Source of the DNA: an uncultured Duodenibacillus sp.
GTDB taxonomy: Bacteria; Pseudomonadota; Gammaproteobacteria; Burkholderiales; Burkholderiaceae_F
Assembly (NCBI GenBank): GCA_944390715.1
Contig: CALXQS010000001.1
Span: 62,001-126,000, forward strand
Direction: 5' to 3'
Length of the DNA stretch: 64,000 nucleotides
The notes beneath the pieces are model-generated. The model searched no databases. It worked only from the letters and a program-made list of their open reading frames with translations, and was not told the origin of the DNA. The position numbers and the translations under genes are program-made. Of this stretch, positions 50,018 through 63,050 are shown one piece after another. Numbering within the stretch: the stretch's first letter is position 1; every line of letters starts with the position of its first letter.

Positions 50018-50938
50018 CTATTCTCTATCTTCTTGTTTGACGCCGGGCGCCAGACGTTCGATCAAAGAATCCAGATCATCAAAATTTGCAAAATCAATCA
50101 CCAGTCTTCCCTTGCCGCGACGCCCATAGACAACGTGCACAGGAGCTCCTATCGATTCGGAAAGACGCTCTTCAAGGATCTGATCATCGCGGTTGACTTT
50201 TGCCGCTTTCTTCACTTGCTTTGCCCGAGGTTTTGCACTGAGTTCCTTCACAAGCTTCTCAGCCTCGCGAACTGAGAGTTCCTTGGCGACAATTTCATTG
50301 GCCGCTTGAATTTGTTCGGCTCCTGACAGGGTCAACAGCGCTCGAGCATGCCCCATATCCAACTTGCCGTCGACGAGCATCTGCTGAACGGGATCCGTCA
50401 AATTGAGCAAGCGAAGCAAATTTGTTGTTCCTGACCGGCTTCTCCCGATAGCGTCTGCGGCCTGCTCGTGCGTGTAGCCGAATTCATCTATCAGCCTCTT
50501 GACGCCTTGAGCCTCTTCCATTGCATTGAGATCCTCTCGCTGCATGTTCTCAATCAGAGCCATGGCGAGAGCATCCTTATCATCTACCGAGCGAACAATG
50601 GCTGGAATTGTTTTCTTGCCAGCAAGCTTAGAAGCACGAAAACGTCTTTCCCCAGCAATAATCTCATAGCGGCCATTGCCGCTTCGGCGCACAATGATCG
50701 GGCTGATGACTCCCTGCTGCTTGATAGAATCAGCAAGTTCGCTCAGTTTCTCCTGCTCAATCAGCGTCCGCGGCTGGTACTTGCCGGCTTTAAGCACATT
50801 GAGCTCGAGCTCTACAATACCGCTCTCGTTTTTTTCCGGAGAGGCCGCAACAGGCTGCGAGGCATCTTTCGCAACATCATCGCCAAGCAAAGTGCTCAAT
50901 CCGCGTCCCAGTCCGCGAGGTCTTTTCGTTGCAGCCAT
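50018..50938 (-). CDS. parB: Chromosome partitioning protein ParB
   Basis: A 306-residue CTPase that loads at parS and spreads, working with ParA to move the origin. The N-terminal CTP-binding region carries YEIIAGERRFRASKLAG (residues about 80-100) and the HTH (TNLLRLLNL preceded by HEQAADAIGRSRSG) binds parS. The C-terminal dimerisation part (about 225-306) has LVIDFANFDDLDSLIERL. The start MAATKRPRGLGRGLSTLL is the standard ParB/Spo0J opening. It begins two bases after the parA stop. Cognate parS palindromes lie 3.5 to 5.5 kb away, near mnmG and mnmE. Confidence 0.96.
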   Translation of the reverse strand: MAATKRPRGLGRGLSTLLGDDVAKDASQPVAASPEKNESGIVELELNVLKAGKYQPRTLIEQEKLSELADSIKQQGVISPIIVRRSGNGRYEIIAGERRFRASKLAGKKTIPAIVRSVDDKDALAMALIENMQREDLNAMEEAQGVKRLIDEFGYTHEQAADAIGRSRSGTTNLLRLLNLTDPVQQMLVDGKLDMGHARALLTLSGAEQIQAANEIVAKELSVREAEKLVKELSAKPRAKQVKKAAKVNRDDQILEERLSESIGAPVHVVYGRRGKGRLVIDFANFDDLDSLIERLAPGVKQEDRE

Positions 50939-50940
50939 GG

Positions 50941-51738
50941 TTATTTCTCCTCTTGTTCATGGTTGTTTTTGTAATCGTTCATGCGCCGGATTAATTCGCG
51001 CCCAAACGCAAGATATGCCTTAGCTCCTCTGCTTGCCTTGTCATACACAATGCCTGGTTCGCCATAAGAGGGGGCTTCAGCTAGACGGACATTTCTAGGG
51101 ATAACAGTATCGAACACTCGTTCCCCAAACGTTTCCTTCAGCTGCTCGCTGACTTCTTTCTGAAGAGTCATGCGTGCATCGAACATCACTCGAAGCAGAC
51201 CAATCACCTGAAGTTTTGGATTTTTATTCTGCCGCACGCGGCGCACCGTATTGACCAAATCACTCAAGCCCTCCAGAGCAAAATATTCGCACTGCATAGG
51301 AATAATGACCCCCATTGCACAGCAAAGGGCATTTACGGTGATCATCGACAGGGAAGGCGGGCAGTCAATCAAAATAAAATCATAACGATCCGAAACTTTA
51401 TCAATCACGCCTTTCAGACGTTTGTCCGGATTCTTAAGCTGCATCAAATCAATTTCCGCTGCAGACAGCTCACGATTGGCAGGAATCAAATCGTATCCGC
51501 CGCTGGCACTTTTACAGACGACTTCATCGAATGAAGCTTCGCCGATCAACAGCTGATAGACGGTCAATGCACAATCGTTCTTCTCAATGCCCGAGCCCAT
51601 AGTGGCATTGCCCTGTGCATCCAGATCGACCAGCAGCACTTTTTGCTTGCGTCTTGCCAAAGCTGCAGCCGTATTTACGGCGGTTGTTGTCTTGCCAACG
51701 CCGCCTTTTTGATTGGCTATGCAAAAAATGTATGCCAT
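50941..51738 (-). CDS. parA: Chromosome partitioning ATPase ParA
   Basis: A 265-residue Walker-type ATPase. The deviant Walker A NQKGGVGKTT (signature lysine K11 and K16) and the downstream VLLVDLDAQGNATMGSG and DFILIDCPPSLSM (Walker B-like) blocks are clear. It forms DNA-bound gradients that segregate ParB-parS. With parB it makes a two-gene unit in the usual betaproteobacterial order rsmG-parA-parB; 180 bases separate it from rsmG. Confidence 0.96.
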   Translation of the reverse strand: MAYIFCIANQKGGVGKTTTAVNTAAALARRKQKVLLVDLDAQGNATMGSGIEKNDCALTVYQLLIGEASFDEVVCKSASGGYDLIPANRELSAAEIDLMQLKNPDKRLKGVIDKVSDRYDFILIDCPPSLSMITVNALCCAMGVIIPMQCEYFALEGLSDLVNTVRRVRQNKNPKLQVIGLLRVMFDARMTLQKEVSEQLKETFGERVFDTVIPRNVRLAEAPSYGEPGIVYDKASRGAKAYLAFGRELIRRMNDYKNNHEQEEK

Positions 51739-52576: not shown

Positions 52577-54475
52577 CTAACTCCACTTTAAGCGCTTTAA
52601 ATGTATTAAAAGCAATGATACGGCTGCAGGCGTAACTCCAGAAATTCGACTCGCTTGACCAAGCGTTTCTGGTCTTCCCGCCTTGAGCTTCTGCCGAACC
52701 TCGAAAGACAACCCAACTACTTTGTCATAATCCATATTTTCAGGAATTAACATTGATTCATGCGCAAGTGTTTTCTGAACCTCTTCTTTTTGTCGTTCTA
52801 TATATCCTTTGTATTTAAGTGCAATTTCAACCTGTTCGATTTGAGCTTCGTCAGTCAAAAAGGTTGCACTAACTAGTTCTCCAGTTCTCTTTTTAAGTGT
52901 CATGAGCTGCTTATATGACACATTAGGTCTTGAAAGCAGAGAGGACAAGTTGTACTCACGTTCGATGGATGTACCCAATACACGTTCATCTTCATGAACG
53001 GCCAAAATCTCAGGATTAATCCAAACAGATTTCATTCTTTCCAATTCGCGATCTACAGCCTCTTTTTTTCTCGCGAATCTAGCCCATTTTTCTTCAGGCA
53101 ATGCTCCCAGCTTGTGAGCCAACTCTGCCAAGCGAACATCTGCGTTATCCTCGCGCAAACTCAAACGATATTCAGCTCGACTTGTAAACATTCGGTATGG
53201 TTCTGTCACGCCTTTGGTTGTTAAATCATCCACCATTACCCCAATATATGCCTCATCACGTCGCGGGCACCATTCTTCCTTACCGAGAGCTCTTGCTGCT
53301 GCATTTATGCCAGCCAACAACCCCTGAGCTGCAGCCTCCTCGTAGCCAGTCGTACCATTAATTTGACCCGCAAAGTATAAATTTTCAATATTTTTAGTTT
53401 CAAAAGTCCTCTTAAGCTCACGAGGATCATAGAAATCATATTCAATAGCGTAACCTGGTCTCAGCAAATGAGCATTTTCCAATCCAGGTATGCAGTGAAT
53501 CATTTCCCATTGCACATCAAAGGGCAATGATGTTGAAATGCCGTTTGGGTAAAAGACATTTGTGTCCAATCCCTCAGGCTCTAAAAACACCTGATGACTT
53601 TTTTTATCTCTAAATCTTTGTACCTTGTCTTCTATAGAAGGGCAATATCTTGGCCCAATCCCTTCGATAATCCCCGAGTACATCGGAGATCTGTCAAGGT
53701 TTGCACGAATAATATCGTGCATCTTTTCGTTCGTATGAGTTATCCAGCACGGAACCTGGCGCGGATGATCGATTCCAGGCTCCATTAATGAGAATGATGG
53801 TATTGGATCCAGATCCCCTGGTTGCTCTTTGCATTTCGAAAAATTAATTGATCTGCCGTCAATTCTCGCTGGTGTACCTGTCTTTAACCTGCCTTTTGGC
53901 AGACCTAATTCAATCAAACGGCGCGCCAAACTAATTGATGGTGGATCGCCAGCTCTACCTGCTGAGTAATGTTCAAGCCCAATATGTACCAGACCATTCA
54001 AGAACGTCCCCGAGCAAACAACAACTGTTTTTGCTTTAAAACGTATTCCTGTTTGCGTTACGACTCCACAAACAGTTTTGCCATTAACAACAACATCATC
54101 AACAGCTTGTTGAAACACCCATAAATTTCTCTGCATTTCAATGCAACGGCGCATTTCAACTCGGTAAAGATTTCTGTCAATTTGCGCGCGAGTCGCACGA
54201 ACTGCCGGCCCCTTTGAACTATTCAACACACGAAACTGAATGCCAGACCGGTCGGTTACAACTCCCATTACTCCGCCCATAGCATCCACTTCTTTCACCA
54301 AGTGACCCTTACCAATACCGCCTATCGAAGGGTTGCACGAAAGCTGGCCGATTGTTTCAATATTATGTGTGACGAGTAATGTTTTTGCACCCATGCGAGC
54401 TGCAACAAGGCACGCCTCAGCTCCAGCATGACCACAGCCTACAACAATGACATCAAAGATTTCTGGATAATTCAT
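52577..54475 (-). CDS. mnmG: tRNA uridine 5-carboxymethylaminomethyl modification enzyme subunit
   Basis: A 632-residue FAD enzyme working with MnmE to modify U34 of tRNAs. The FAD motif [21 protein letters not shown] at the N-terminus and [23 protein letters not shown] are diagnostic, as is [14 protein letters not shown]. Length matches (about 630). Its partner mnmE is only 2 kb away but is separated by parS sites and the transposase-like gene, whereas in many relatives mnmE and mnmG are adjacent. Confidence 0.97.
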
Positions 54476-54484
54476 TTTTCCGAA

Positions 54485-54500
54485 TGTTCCACGTGGAACA
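54485..54500. promoter_or_regulatory. parS: parS site 1 (TGTTCCACGTGGAACA)
   Basis: A perfect 16-base palindrome in the parS family (consensus TGTTNCACGTGNAACA) bound by ParB. It lies 9 bases upstream of the mnmG start. Its origin-proximal position and the nearby parAB genes support the assignment. Confidence 0.92.
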
Positions 54501-54541: not shown

Positions 54542-54557
54542 TGTTTCACGTGAAACA
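54542..54557. promoter_or_regulatory. parS: parS site 2 (TGTTTCACGTGAAACA)
   Basis: A perfect 16-base palindrome identical to the classic proteobacterial parS core. It lies in the mnmG upstream gap, 42 bases from site 1. Confidence 0.95.
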
Positions 54558-54591: not shown

Positions 54592-54607
54592 TGTTCCACG
54601 TGAAACA
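54592..54607. promoter_or_regulatory. parS: parS site 3 (TGTTCCACGTGAAACA)
   Basis: Matches the Bacillus subtilis parS sequence at every position of the 16-base core; palindromic apart from one position pair. It lies 35 bases from site 2. Confidence 0.95.
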
Positions 54608-54668: not shown

Positions 54669-54684
54669 TGTTCCACGTGGAACA
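54669..54684. promoter_or_regulatory. parS: parS site 4 (TGTTCCACGTGGAACA)
   Basis: Second copy of the site 1 sequence, 61 bases beyond site 3 and only 67 bases before the start of the transposase-like gene, whose promoter begins right next to it. Confidence 0.92.
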
Positions 54685-54692
54685 TTTGCTTG

Positions 54693-54722
54693 TTTTTGTA
54701 TAGTGTCTATAGTGTCTATAAT
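54693..54722 (+). promoter_or_regulatory. Promoter of the transposase-like gene with 9-bp direct repeat
   Basis: A perfect -10 box TATAAT is at 54717-54722, 29 bases before the ATG, with a weak -35 (TTTTTG at 54693-54698, 18-base spacing). Between them the sequence TATAGTGTC is repeated twice in direct tandem (54699-54707 and 54708-54716). The repeat is a possible operator. Confidence 0.5.
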
Positions 54723-54751: not shown

Positions 54752-56416
54752 ATGACTTATCGAATAAAGATAACCAAGACAAGAGGCAAGGAATATGCTT
54801 CTATTGTTAAAAACATCTACGATAAACGTCTTCGCGGCTCCACATCTCGCACAGTTCAAAGCTACGGCGATTTGGTTAAGCTCCGGCGTCTCAACCCTAA
54901 CATCGATAATGAACTTCACGAAAAAGTTCTCCGCCTAAACAACAATGAGAAGATCGTTTCGGCCGTTGATGGCTGTAATCAAAACACAGAGCTAACTTTC
55001 GTCAACTCAATAAAGCAGGTCAACTTCGGCATCACGTTCTACCGGAAGGTTTGGGATAGGCTCGAATTGTCGAGTTTGATGGATCAGATACGCCGCAATT
55101 GCAATTTGCGCTTTGACCTGGATCTCGTTTGCTTTCTACTTGCAGCGCAACGTATTTTGAGGCCCCAATCTGTTCTGGATACTTTTCAGAATCGCGACAA
55201 TCTCATATTCGACTTTTCAAAGATGACTTTAGAAAACTTGTACAGATGCATTGATGTACTGTCCATGCACAAACAAGTAGTCATTGACCATCTTGATAAG
55301 TTTTCCAGAAAAATAGTTCCAGAAACTCGCAGCGCAATTTTGTTCGATACAGAAAATTTGAGCTTCCAGCCGACAGTCAGAAATAGGGGAGTCGAAAGCG
55401 CCAACAATCTTCATGCTGATCTGACTGCACTTGGGCTTTGTGTTGATAAAAACGGCATTGCTCTCGATTACAAACCAATGTTCATCACTCCAGATGAGGA
55501 CTTTACGATTTGCAGGGCACTTGATCATTTTTCTAGACCAGACAGCCATCCAGCAGCTGTCAGCGCAATTCTTTTTAGATTGTGGACTGAAAAGTCTGCA
55601 GAAGTCTGCGCTATGCGTAGCGACGGACACGCCGCATATCTTAAAAAACTGCTGTCTGACCCATATTCCTGTGATGAAGTCTTCATCTACGACGATTTCA
55701 CCGGGCGCCTCAGTTCTAAATCAGTGCTACCAGAGAACATTTCAGAATTTAGGCGTCCATTTGTTGTCTTCTGGTCTTCGCGACAACAATGCAATGATTT
55801 AAAGATTCTTAATCGCATCCTTCAAAGAGACATCAAAAGGAATTCTTTAACAAAAAAATCATGCGACGCACTGTCGATCCATCAGCCTTCTGATTTATTC
55901 AACTCATATTTTTATAAACAAGACGTGATGCATGCCGGCTTTTGCCTGATCTTTCATCCGGAATCATTCAATGCTGCTTTAGAACTTTACAAAAAATATC
56001 TACACTGGCAGCAGTTCCGAGTAAAGATTGAGGAGCTTGATTCTGATGATTTCGTTGATTCCTCACATCGAGATCAAAGACAACTCAAAGGAAACCTTTT
56101 AATTTCTCAATTGGCGATGGTTTTAGAGAGCATAGGAAGCTATTTAGTCCATCTCTCAAACCTCGATCTGCCAAACCAACAAATCATCGATTTGCTGAGC
56201 AATGCCTCGTTGTGGATTGTGCAACAAAGAGAACCACGAAAAACTTTCTACATGAGGCAGGAGATTTCTGCTGATAAAAGAAAAAACGAGCAATACAAAA
56301 AGCTTACTGACGGCTTGCTTTCAGCCGTCGACATCAAGCCGCTCAATCGCATTGAAGATGCATCGGGACTTGAACTAAAGACAAACTTGAAGAAACGCAT
56401 CAAGTTTTCAACTTAA
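54752..56416 (+). CDS. IS1634-like DDE transposase family protein, possibly not catalytic
   Basis: A 554-residue protein resembling IS1634/IS4-type transposases. The N-terminus has the family-like RGKEYASIVKNIYDKRLRGSTSRTVQSYGDLVKLRRLNP pattern; the first DDE aspartate may be in AILFDTENLSF, followed by DKNGIALDYKPMFITPDED, and the second in CAMRSDGHAAYLKKL. The region usually holding the catalytic glutamate (Y-2-R-3-E-6-K) reads YLHWQQFRVKIEELDSD, with Q where E is expected. No terminal inverted repeats or target duplication can be found around the gene, and it has its own promoter and terminator. It lies in the parS cluster opposite to all neighbours. Either a decayed or a domesticated transposase; I cannot decide. 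Confidence 0.7.
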   Translation: MTYRIKITKTRGKEYASIVKNIYDKRLRGSTSRTVQSYGDLVKLRRLNPNIDNELHEKVLRLNNNEKIVSAVDGCNQNTELTFVNSIKQVNFGITFYRKVWDRLELSSLMDQIRRNCNLRFDLDLVCFLLAAQRILRPQSVLDTFQNRDNLIFDFSKMTLENLYRCIDVLSMHKQVVIDHLDKFSRKIVPETRSAILFDTENLSFQPTVRNRGVESANNLHADLTALGLCVDKNGIALDYKPMFITPDEDFTICRALDHFSRPDSHPAAVSAILFRLWTEKSAEVCAMRSDGHAAYLKKLLSDPYSCDEVFIYDDFTGRLSSKSVLPENISEFRRPFVVFWSSRQQCNDLKILNRILQRDIKRNSLTKKSCDALSIHQPSDLFNSYFYKQDVMHAGFCLIFHPESFNAALELYKKYLHWQQFRVKIEELDSDDFVDSSHRDQRQLKGNLLISQLAMVLESIGSYLVHLSNLDLPNQQIIDLLSNASLWIVQQREPRKTFYMRQEISADKRKNEQYKKLTDGLLSAVDIKPLNRIEDASGLELKTNLKKRIKFST

Positions 56417-56427
56417 GCCCTTAAAGC

Positions 56428-56468
56428 AAAGCCGGCAAGCAACAAGAATGCATGCCGGCTTTGTTTTT
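56428..56468 (+). terminator. Terminator of the transposase-like gene
   Basis: Ten-base arms AAAGCCGGCA (56428-56437) and TGCCGGCTTT (56453-56462) with a 15-base loop, then GTTTTTAT. It begins 12 bases after the stop codon. Confidence 0.87.
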
Positions 56469-56474
56469 ATAGAT

Positions 56475-56490
56475 GTTTCACGTGAAACAG
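56475..56490. promoter_or_regulatory. parS: parS site 5 (TGTTTCACGTGAAACA)
   Basis: Perfect 16-base palindrome, identical to site 2. It lies between the transposase-like gene terminator and the mnmE stop codon (minus), about 1.8 kb from sites 1-4. Confidence 0.95.
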
Positions 56491-56496
56491 CAGAAC

Positions 56497-57867
56497 CTAT
56501 TTACCAATACAGAACTTAGAGAAGATCATACCCAGCAGATCATCAGCAAGTGTTTGTCCAACAATCTCACCAAGCACCTGTCCAGCTAACCGCAATTCCT
56601 CTGCTGCAATATCAAGTCCAATACTCCTGCCGACCGCTCCACCGCGAATTTGATTAATGTGTTCAAGGGCACGAGCAATGCAGTCCAAATGCCTCGATCT
56701 CGCTAGAAACTCTCCTTGAACTCCATCAGTCATGCCTGAAATTTCTTTGAGTTTTTCAATAAACGAATTCATCCCCTGGCCAGTCAGAGCTGACACAGAA
56801 ATTACCTCATCCTGTGGAATCTCTTTAACCAAATCGATTTTGTTTTTTACCTTTAGAAAAACGACCCCTTCTCGAAGCCTGGGCCGAATCAATTTCATTG
56901 CCTCACGCTCAGCATCCTGATTAGCCTGGTCCGCACTCGTCAAATGAACGACGACGTCGGCATCTTCAACTGACTTTAAGGTGCGCTCTATGCCGATTTG
57001 CTCTACTTTATCGTTAGTACTTCTTATTCCAGCCGTATCAATCAGGTTGACGGTAAACCCATCAAGGTTGACTGTATGCACAATCCGATCCCTAGTCGTG
57101 CCTGCAATATCCGTCACGATAGCGACTTCCTCTCCTGCAACAGCATTCATAAGAGAACTTTTGCCTACATTTGGGGACCCGACCAAAATAACTGTCAGAC
57201 CATCACGTAGTACCTTTCCTCTCATTGCTGTTTGAGAAAGTTCCTCCAAATCTCCGGCAATTTCTTCGACCTTATCGTTGACGTGCCCGTCCTCAATAAA
57301 GTCTATTTCTTCTTCCGGAAAATCAATTGTTGCTTCAATATACGCACGCAGTTCGATCAACTTTTCATTGATAGCGCTAATCTTTTGCGAAAAAACTCCC
57401 TGCATAGAACGAGCTGCCGCTCGTGCCGCCGCTTGATTAGATGCCTCAATAAGATCTGCCACTCCTTCTGCCTGTGCGAGGTCCATTCGGCCATTCAAAA
57501 ATGCTCTTTGCGAAAATTCTCCAGGCTGCGCTTGTCTTAAACCTATTGATCGACCTATCTCCAAACATCGATCAATAATCATCTGGAGTACTGCTGGTCC
57601 GCCATGAGCCTGTATTTCTAGTACGTCCTCGCCCGTATAAGAAGAAGGGCCGCGATAATAGATGACAATAGCCTGATCAATTAAATTTCCTGAGGCATCA
57701 TTGACTGCAAGCAGATGCGCGTGTCGAGGCTTAAGTGTTTTATTTGGGAAAAGCCCTGCAACAACTTGTTCCATCGACATCCTTGAACCTGATAATCTGA
57801 CGATGCCGATGCCGCCGCATCCTGCAGCACTAGCTCTGGCAATAATAGGGTCTTTATCGCTGTTCAT
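56497..57867 (-). CDS. mnmE: tRNA uridine modification GTPase MnmE
   Basis: A 456-residue GTPase partner of MnmG. G1 is VGSPNVGKSSLMNA, followed by the switch segment IVTDIAGTTRD and the DTAGIR Walker B-like motif; NKIDLV is the G4 box. The protein ends in FCIGK with the functional C-terminal cysteine. Length (about 455) and the N-terminal SGSRMSMEQVV region agree with MnmE. It converges on the transposase-like gene. Confidence 0.97.
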   Translation of the reverse strand: MNSDKDPIIARASAAGCGGIGIVRLSGSRMSMEQVVAGLFPNKTLKPRHAHLLAVNDASGNLIDQAIVIYYRGPSSYTGEDVLEIQAHGGPAVLQMIIDRCLEIGRSIGLRQAQPGEFSQRAFLNGRMDLAQAEGVADLIEASNQAAARAAARSMQGVFSQKISAINEKLIELRAYIEATIDFPEEEIDFIEDGHVNDKVEEIAGDLEELSQTAMRGKVLRDGLTVILVGSPNVGKSSLMNAVAGEEVAIVTDIAGTTRDRIVHTVNLDGFTVNLIDTAGIRSTNDKVEQIGIERTLKSVEDADVVVHLTSADQANQDAEREAMKLIRPRLREGVVFLKVKNKIDLVKEIPQDEVISVSALTGQGMNSFIEKLKEISGMTDGVQGEFLARSRHLDCIARALEHINQIRGGAVGRSIGLDIAAEELRLAGQVLGEIVGQTLADDLLGMIFSKFCIGK

Positions 57868-61685: not shown

Positions 61686-63050
61686 ATGACTGATTTCTGG
61701 ACTCAATGCCTTGAAGCTTTGCGGGAGAGCACTCCTGCTCAGATTTACCAAAACTGGTATGCCGATCTCACTGCAGAAGTTGAAATGGAAGCAGGGTCGG
61801 TTACGATTTTTGTGTCTTCCGGCTTCAAAATGAATAAAGTTCGAGAGGCTTACGGGCAGACCATCCAGCAAATCGTCAACCGCGTTGCGGGCAAGGAAAT
61901 GGAAATCGTCTGGCAAATTAAAGACGATGAAGCCTCTGCTGCCCCTTTGCTTAATGCCGAGGAAGACTCGCCCGTCCAGTCGCCAAGCGAAACCGACATC
62001 AGCAAGACAGGACTTTTGCCGTACCTAACCTTTGAGAATATGGTTGAAGGTCAGGCCAATCAGATGGCATATGCCTCTGGTCTGCAGGTAGCTTCGAGTC
62101 CGAAATCCATCTACAACCCTCTTTTCATTTATGGAGGAGTAGGTCTAGGCAAGACTCACCTGATGCACGCCATCGGCAATCGTTTTCTGGCCAATAACCC
62201 AAAAGCAAAAATTCTCTGCATATCTGCTCAGCAGTACGTGCAGGAATTTATGGATGTCATGCGCCTGCGCAACCTCAACAACGAAAGATTTTCTGAAGCA
62301 ATGCGGCAGTTTGAGGCTCGTTACCGAGGGCTGGATCTTTTGTTGATTGATGATATCCAAAGCTTTGGCGGTCGTGACGGCACGCAAACCAACTTCTTTC
62401 TAGCCTTTGAGAACATGGTGCCGCATGGCAAGCAGATCGTGCTCACCAGCGATACTTATCCAAGAAATCTGAAAGAGTTCCAGGAACGCCTCCTGAGCCG
62501 CTTAACTCAGGGATTGATTGTGACGGTTGAGCCGCCGGAATTCGACATGCGCGTTCAGATTCTCTTGCAGAAAGCCGAACGTTCTGGTTTAGACATGCCT
62601 CGCGAAGTAGCTGAAATCATTGCCAAGAAGCTCAAAAGCAACGTCAGAGAACTTGAAGGTGCTGTTCAGCAAGTTCTGGCCTACACGCGATTTCATCAAG
62701 TCGATGTCACCATTGACACTGTCAAGCTTGCTTTAAGAGACATCTTCAAAGCAAGCAGCGTTCCCGTGACGATAGAGGCAATTCAGCAAACTGTTGCCCA
62801 GCACTACGGTTTTAAAGTAGCTGAACTCAGTTCAAAATCCAGAAAAGCAAAGCTGGTGAGGGCGCGACAGGTTGCCATCTACCTTGCGCGTGAACTGACC
62901 AAAAAAAGCCTCCCTGAACTTGGTGAGCTCTTTGGCGGACGTGATCATGCCACGGTTATCTACGCGTGCAAAAAAATAGCATCTGAACGAAACACGGATG
63001 AAGAGCTCAAATACGATCTGCATCTGTTGGAGCAGAAGATCAAAAGCTAG
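61686..63050 (+). CDS. dnaA: Chromosomal replication initiator DnaA
   Basis: A 454-residue initiator. Domain I (residues 1-85) starts MTDFWTQCLEALRESTPAQIYQNW. The AAA+ domain has Walker A YGGVGLGKTHLMHAIGN and Walker B LLIDDIQSFGGRDGTQTNFF; GLIVTVEPPEFDMR precedes the lid. Domain IV, with KAKLVRARQVAIYLARELTKKSLPELGELFGGRDHATVIYACKK, binds DnaA boxes. The ATG 61686 is confirmed by the normal start. dnaN follows after 121 bases. Confidence 0.98.
   Translation: MTDFWTQCLEALRESTPAQIYQNWYADLTAEVEMEAGSVTIFVSSGFKMNKVREAYGQTIQQIVNRVAGKEMEIVWQIKDDEASAAPLLNAEEDSPVQSPSETDISKTGLLPYLTFENMVEGQANQMAYASGLQVASSPKSIYNPLFIYGGVGLGKTHLMHAIGNRFLANNPKAKILCISAQQYVQEFMDVMRLRNLNNERFSEAMRQFEARYRGLDLLLIDDIQSFGGRDGTQTNFFLAFENMVPHGKQIVLTSDTYPRNLKEFQERLLSRLTQGLIVTVEPPEFDMRVQILLQKAERSGLDMPREVAEIIAKKLKSNVRELEGAVQQVLAYTRFHQVDVTIDTVKLALRDIFKASSVPVTIEAIQQTVAQHYGFKVAELSSKSRKAKLVRARQVAIYLARELTKKSLPELGELFGGRDHATVIYACKKIASERNTDEELKYDLHLLEQKIKS

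What the first reader, a model, noticed from the sequence alone, without database searches (positions are those of the whole stretch)
54752..56416. Transposase-family protein that may have lost its catalytic glutamate
Seen: the expected Y-2-R-3-E-6-K block reads YLHWQQFRVKIEELDSD, with Q where family members have E. No terminal inverted repeats or target duplication are visible around it, yet the reading frame is intact with a clean promoter and terminator. Known: domesticated transposases keep an intact frame but lose catalytic residues and ends. Inference: retained for a host role near the origin.
Basis: partly seen in the sequence, partly recalled or inferred. Interest (0 to 1): 0.6.

Follow-up and report, generated by a model that had tools for sequence, protein, structure and literature searches.

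The report
Dead transposase gene inside bacterial centromere
A gut bacterium (Duodenibacillus) keeps, in the middle of the DNA cluster that its chromosome-segregation machinery holds on to, a gene that came from a jumping gene, has lost its DNA-cutting residues, and is still under selection as a protein, which suggests that it was recruited for a host job, probably binding DNA at that spot.

Summary
ORF 54752-56416 (554 aa) is a remote IS1634-family transposase. Two of three catalytic residues are gone: the VADRGLN block (second D) and the LWxIE block (E); the first D (D199) remains. No IS1634-type ends flank it and it has no close copy in the genome. A sister species has the same gene at the same place (41% identical, intact frame). 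Codon-position identities (56/68/41%) and simulation exclude neutral survival: the protein is constrained, though it evolves about ten times faster than its neighbours. A third species has another dead IS1634-like ORF in the same slot; trees reject a single origin (AU p about 0.0015, long-branch caveat). A tandem TAGTGTCTA repeat between the gene's -35- and -10-like hexamers occurs once in each of the two genomes with the gene and in no other genus member; a similar one precedes a broken relative in another genus. Best reading: a catalytically dead, self-regulating DNA-binding protein recruited at the chromosomal centromere; its molecular role is inferred.

The parts
54752..56416 (+). IS1634-derived, catalytically dead transposase-like protein, 554 aa
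   Evidence: ORF; NF033559 transpos_IS1634 E=9.6e-15, 54.6 bits against a curated cut-off of 100; no Pfam match, whereas the genome's genuine IS1634 matches DDE_Tnp_1
54752..54931 (+). codons 1-60: strongly conserved segment, also kept at 53-59% in the G010 relic; presumed DNA-binding N-terminus (inference)
   Evidence: alignment; for the relic
55346..55348 (+). codon D199, first catalytic Asp, retained (LFDTENL against LYDVTTY)
55559..55570 (+). codons 270-273 (VSAI): position where family members have VVADRGLN with the second catalytic Asp; absent here
55997..56047 (+). codons 416-432 YLHWQQFRVKIEELDSD: position of the catalytic Glu block (LWKIEESFR in family members), Glu absent
54485..54500 (.). 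parS-like site TGTTCCACGTGGAACA
54542..54557 (.). parS site TGTTTCACGTGAAACA (consensus)
54592..54607 (.). parS-like site TGTTCCACGTGAAACA
54669..54684 (.). parS-like site TGTTCCACGTGGAACA
56474..56489 (.). parS site TGTTTCACGTGAAACA (consensus), downstream of the gene
54696..54722 (+). promoter-like TTGTAT-15-TATAAT
   Evidence: sequence; not found by the strict scan
54701..54718 (+). tandem repeat TAGTGTCTA-TAGTGTCTA between the two hexamers; putative operator of the protein
56423..56467 (+). intrinsic terminator
   Evidence: fold -27.4 kcal/mol, z -6.45; stem largely conserved in G005
52577..54475 (-). mnmG, left neighbour
56497..57867 (-). mnmE, right neighbour
50018..51738 (-). parB (50018-50938) and parA (50941-51738)
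   Evidence: ORF translations, identified by eye

Best explanation
The gene is a domesticated IS1634-family transposase. SHOWN: it lost two of the three catalytic residues and its mobile ends; it is kept as an intact protein under purifying selection in two species; and it sits inside the sole parS cluster (chromosomal centromere) of the chromosome. INFERRED: the protein uses its conserved N-terminal part to bind the tandem TAGTGTCTA repeat in its own promoter, next to the parS sites, thereby repressing itself, and acts as an architectural or regulatory DNA-binding protein of the ParB-parS / origin-proximal region (for example by shaping ParB spreading, SMC loading or local transcription). The RNase-H-like core is kept only as a scaffold.
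For: Dead catalytic site. Tn5-like overall fold in the model (1muh, VIA Z=10, 277 residues aligned; mean pLDDT only 55.9). No ends, no close copies. Synteny with G005 (uncultured Duodenibacillus sp., CALXKM010000010) between mnmG and mnmE. Selection: position 1/2/3 identity 0.56/0.68/0.41; dN 0.53-0.61 against dS 1.8-2.3 (saturated); mnmE dN 0.055 in the same pair; 0 of 500 neutral simulations at 25% or 45% divergence keep the frame. N-terminal third conserved (57%), C-terminal stretch 43%, D1-D2 region relaxed (19%). All five parS of the genome within 2 kb around the gene. The tandem repeat lies between the promoter hexamers, occurs once per genome, only in the two species that have the gene, and a similar one precedes the relic in another genus. 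Second dead IS1634-like ORF in the same slot in G008.
Against: No direct evidence that the protein binds DNA or parS, or affects segregation. Six genus members have no such ORF at the parS cluster (G001, G002, G004, G006, G007, G009) and the cluster evidently works without it, so it is not a core segregation part. Only two clear orthologs are known. dS is saturated. The N-terminal fold prediction was not stable: beta-rich in the full model, helical and poor alone.
Confidence: 0.5

Rival explanations
1. Domesticated, but the job is local transcription control (of itself and of the divergent mnmG or convergent mnmE), and the parS neighbourhood is only where the ancestral insertion happened to be tolerated.
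For: The operator-like repeat is in the gene's own promoter, and a neighbouring block that looks like the mnmG promoter (GCTGAAGTATATCAATTT) is conserved. The parS interval is an expandable non-coding gap in this genus.
Against: A second, apparently separate IS1634-derived ORF took the same slot in G008, which chance tolerance alone does not predict; mnmG and mnmE have no such regulator beside them elsewhere in the family.
Confidence: 0.25
2. A trans-dominant inhibitor of resident IS1634 elements (like Tn5 Inh): a dead transposase kept because it poisons transposition.
For: The genomes with the gene also carry genuine IS1634 copies; a dead transposase could form mixed multimers.
Against: The resident IS1634 are only about 24-30% identical over the aligned N-terminal part, and IS1634 ends (CCYGWSTTT) do not resemble the TAGTGTCTA repeat. 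IS1634-rich relatives (G034, G077, G007) lack the gene.
Confidence: 0.1
3. A decaying IS1634 remnant whose frame is open by chance.
For: It evolves fast (41% identity where mnmE is 91%), and a related copy in G010 is broken after about 62 codons.
Against: Codon-position signal, in-frame indels, and 0 of 500 neutral simulations keeping the frame.
Confidence: 0.04
4. On origin: the G008 ORF and the window gene are one ancient ortholog rather than two separate captures (this concerns history and is compatible with the best explanation).
For: Same interval, orientation and flanking parS arrangement; both have very long branches, so the tree can mislead.
Against: The G008 protein groups with G007-type IS1634 at 96-100% support; one clade is rejected, AU p=0.0015 (full length) and 0.0016 (N-terminus).
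Confidence: 0.3

Closest known systems
IS1634 family transposases (NF033559; family defined in PMC2266710)
   Same: N-terminal region, helical region and RNase-H-like core order; best family hit; D1 retained
   Different: no D2, no E, no ends, single copy, fixed syntenic location, under host-type selection
TnpA-REP (RAYT), called the first prokaryotic domesticated transposase (PMC8266576)
   Same: chromosomally fixed transposase relative kept as a host gene
   Different: associated with REP palindromes and catalytically different (own knowledge: HUH/Y1 enzyme), not a DDE enzyme with a dead active site at parS
TldR (TnpB-derived RNA-guided regulators; mechanism from own knowledge, mentioned in PMC13418256)
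   Same: transposon-encoded protein that lost nuclease function and became a DNA-binding regulator
   Different: RNA-guided RuvC-fold protein; unrelated in sequence, no link with parS known
CENP-B (pogo transposase-derived centromere protein of mammals; from own knowledge)
   Same: transposase-derived protein at a centromere
   Different: eukaryotic, another DDE lineage; here centromere binding has not been shown
Tn5 transposase inhibitor Inh (from own knowledge)
   Same: inactive form of an IS4-superfamily transposase
   Different: encoded within the mobile element itself and blocks it in trans

Membership tests
IS1634 family (as mobile element) | match to the family profile above the curated cut-off | tested here: not met
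   54.6 bits against a cut-off of 100: homology is clear, equivalog assignment is not
IS1634 family (as mobile element) | DDE triad, perfectly conserved in the family (PMC2266710) | tested here: not met
   D1 kept, D2 and E absent in the window and in G005
IS1634 family (as mobile element) | terminal inverted repeats | tested here: not met
   ends of family members derived; no such pair in the flanks
IS1634 family (as mobile element) | 5-6 bp target duplication | not tested
   without recognisable ends the insertion boundary cannot be placed
IS1634 family (as mobile element) | IS4-superfamily RNase-H transposase fold | tested here: inconclusive
   Tn5 1muh is the top VIA match, Z=10, 277 aligned, but model pLDDT is 55.9
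domesticated transposase | derived from a transposase, immobile, single copy, syntenic in relatives | tested here: met
   (one syntenic ortholog)
domesticated transposase | purifying selection on the protein | tested here: met
   (two species; dS saturated)
domesticated transposase | demonstrated host function | not testable with these tools
   needs genetics
parS/ParB centromere component | located in the parS cluster | tested here: met
   all 5 parS of the genome flank the gene
parS/ParB centromere component | binds centromere DNA or ParB | not testable with these tools
   needs ChIP or EMSA

The most novel reading that the evidence does not exclude
Bacterial chromosomal centromeres in Duodenibacillus have repeatedly recruited dead IS1634 transposases (at least two separate captures into the same parS slot) as centromere-resident DNA-binding proteins that help or tune the ParB-parS complex: a bacterial parallel of CENP-B.
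Probability: 0.2. Interest if true: 0.85.

Novelty: new variant of a known kind. Interest (0 to 1): 0.6.

Why it matters
Bacterial domesticated DDE transposases are rarely documented; in the passages found of a review of mobile-element recruitment in prokaryotes (PMC8987985), resolvases and ParA are named for segregation but no DDE transposase. A dead transposase fixed in the middle of the only parS cluster, with a genome-unique putative operator beside parS and a second dead transposase in the same slot in another species, gives a concrete and testable case of transposon-to-centromere recruitment in bacteria. It also warns annotators, because such genes are easily filed as ordinary IS transposases.

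Tried and rejected
Relics of the gene in the 1.7-1.9 kb ORF-less parS intervals of G004, G006 and G009: six-frame profile searches gave nothing above shuffled controls. Plasmid collection: no match. PDB by sequence: none. Pfam: none; PHROGs: only chance. A genome-contig scan with the single protein found nothing; with the alignment it found only the G005 record. Other members in 399 Burkholderiales genomes: only G000 and G005 at full length. N-terminal domain folded alone: poor model (mean pLDDT 61.0, helical) that contradicts the full-length model, so not used. Foldseek gave no hit at E<=0.001. Rfam: no RNA in the intervals. Biopython's YN00 failed for the gene and its ML value for mnmG looks unreliable, so NG86 and codon-position identities are quoted. 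Literature on transposase plus parS plus centromere plus ParB: nothing relevant among the 20 papers listed. IS1634 relatives in viral contigs were found only as distant rows for the structure alignment.

Full report
What it is. The ORF at 54752-56416 encodes 554 aa. Its only family match is IS1634 transposase, NF033559, E = 9.6e-15, well below the curated cut-off; Pfam finds nothing, whereas the genuine IS1634 of the same genome scores 358 bits and has the DDE_Tnp_1 domain. The host is a Duodenibacillus-like member of Sutterellaceae: the same-genus genome G005 is the record CALXKM010000010, 'uncultured Duodenibacillus sp.'.

Catalytic residues. Aligned with genuine IS1634 proteins from the same bacterial family, the first Asp is kept (LFD-TENL against LYD-VTTY). 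The second Asp (VVADRGLN) and the Glu (LWKIEESFR) are both absent; at the Glu the protein reads HWQ---QFR, a three-residue deletion. The ortholog in G005 has the same losses. The AlphaFold model is of low confidence (pLDDT 55.9), but Tn5 transposase 1muh stands clear at the top of the structural second look (Z = 10, 277 residues), consistent with a transposase-derived fold.

Not mobile. No close copy exists in the genome. Active IS1634 copies in relatives end in CCYGWSTTT-type inverted repeats; no such pair flanks this gene.

Retained. In G005 a 557-aa homolog (41% identity) lies at the same place, between mnmG and mnmE and in the same orientation. Codon positions 1/2/3 are 56/68/41% identical; dN is about 0.53-0.61 and dS about 1.8-2.3, saturated. 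The same pair has dN 0.055 for mnmE and 0.049 for mnmG. The gene therefore evolves about ten times faster in amino acids than its neighbours but is still constrained. Conservation is highest in the first 180 codons (57%) and lowest around and after D1 (19%), as expected if the active site is no longer used. Neutral simulation to 25% or 45% divergence never kept the frame (0 of 500 each).

Where it sits. The genome has exactly five matches to TGTTYCACGTGRAACA, all in the 2-kb mnmG-mnmE interval, four upstream and one downstream of the gene (control pattern zero). parA and parB are at 50018-51738 and dnaA at 61686. The gene thus lies inside the chromosomal centromere. Where mnmG and mnmE are neighbours in other genera of the family, the interval is 4-213 bp in all but one genome, with zero to four parS sites; in the genus it is 150-225 bp in two species and has grown in others: 0.87 kb (G007), about 1.75 kb without an ORF (G004, G006), and more than 2 kb with an ORF (G000, G005, G008). 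In G009 mnmE has moved away and an ORF-less parS stretch of similar size lies between mnmG and thiC. G003 could not be judged, as its contig ends beside mnmG.

A second case. In G008 the same slot holds a 514-aa ORF in the same orientation, after five parS sites and before one; it is a remote IS1634 relative (E = 6e-5) that has lost all three catalytic positions in the alignment. It groups with G007-type IS1634 rather than with the window pair; a single clade is rejected with AU p = 0.0015 for the whole protein and 0.0016 for the N-terminal part. Branches are long, so two captures are favoured, not proven. That the G008 ORF is itself under selection rests only on its open frame at great divergence; no second species has it.

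A putative operator. Between the gene's promoter-like hexamers (TTGTAT at 54696, TATAAT at 54717) lies TAGTGTCTATAGTGTCTA, a tandem 9-bp repeat. It is conserved in G005 in an otherwise poorly conserved stretch, occurs once in each of these two genomes and in none of the other eight genomes of the genus. A similar double repeat (AAGTGTCTAATTAGCGTCTA) precedes the broken relative in G010 of another genus, whose first 60 codons are 53-59% identical to the window pair and group with it at 100/99 support. The position of the repeat suggests that the protein represses itself; this is inference.

Mechanism. Shown: dead catalytic site, immobility, selection, position in the parS cluster. Inferred: N-terminal binding to the tandem repeat, self-repression, and an effect on the parS/ParB region. 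The role cannot be essential for parS function, since relatives with parS clusters lack the gene. Rivals are a purely local transcription regulator and an inhibitor of resident IS1634.

Novelty. Domesticated transposases are a known kind. A dead DDE transposase fixed in a bacterial parS cluster, possibly recruited twice, was not found in the literature that could be searched, which is not a full search. I rate it a new variant of a known kind.

Noticed in passing
L049 4533-6285, L051 5838-7574, L148 5082-6925: Three genus members (G004, G006, G009) have about 1.7-1.9 kb of AT-rich DNA with five parS or near-parS sites spread through it and no ORF of 100 aa; no relic of the transposase could be detected. 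Why the gap keeps this size is unexplained.
   Followed up: partly
L037 5852-6285: In G010 (another genus) a broken relative of the gene (first ~60 codons, then stops) lies just downstream of gyrB, next to an IS3-type element, with a similar double repeat upstream.
   Followed up: partly
L048 4589-6133: G008 carries a different dead IS1634-like ORF in the same parS slot.
   Followed up: yes
L148 5082-6925: In G009 mnmE has moved away and the parS cluster lies between mnmG and thiC instead.
   Followed up: no
L031 1402-3147: The window's own genome has one intact IS1634 element (581-aa ORF, DDE intact) on contig C21 and degenerate or more distant family members on C3 and C20.
   Followed up: partly
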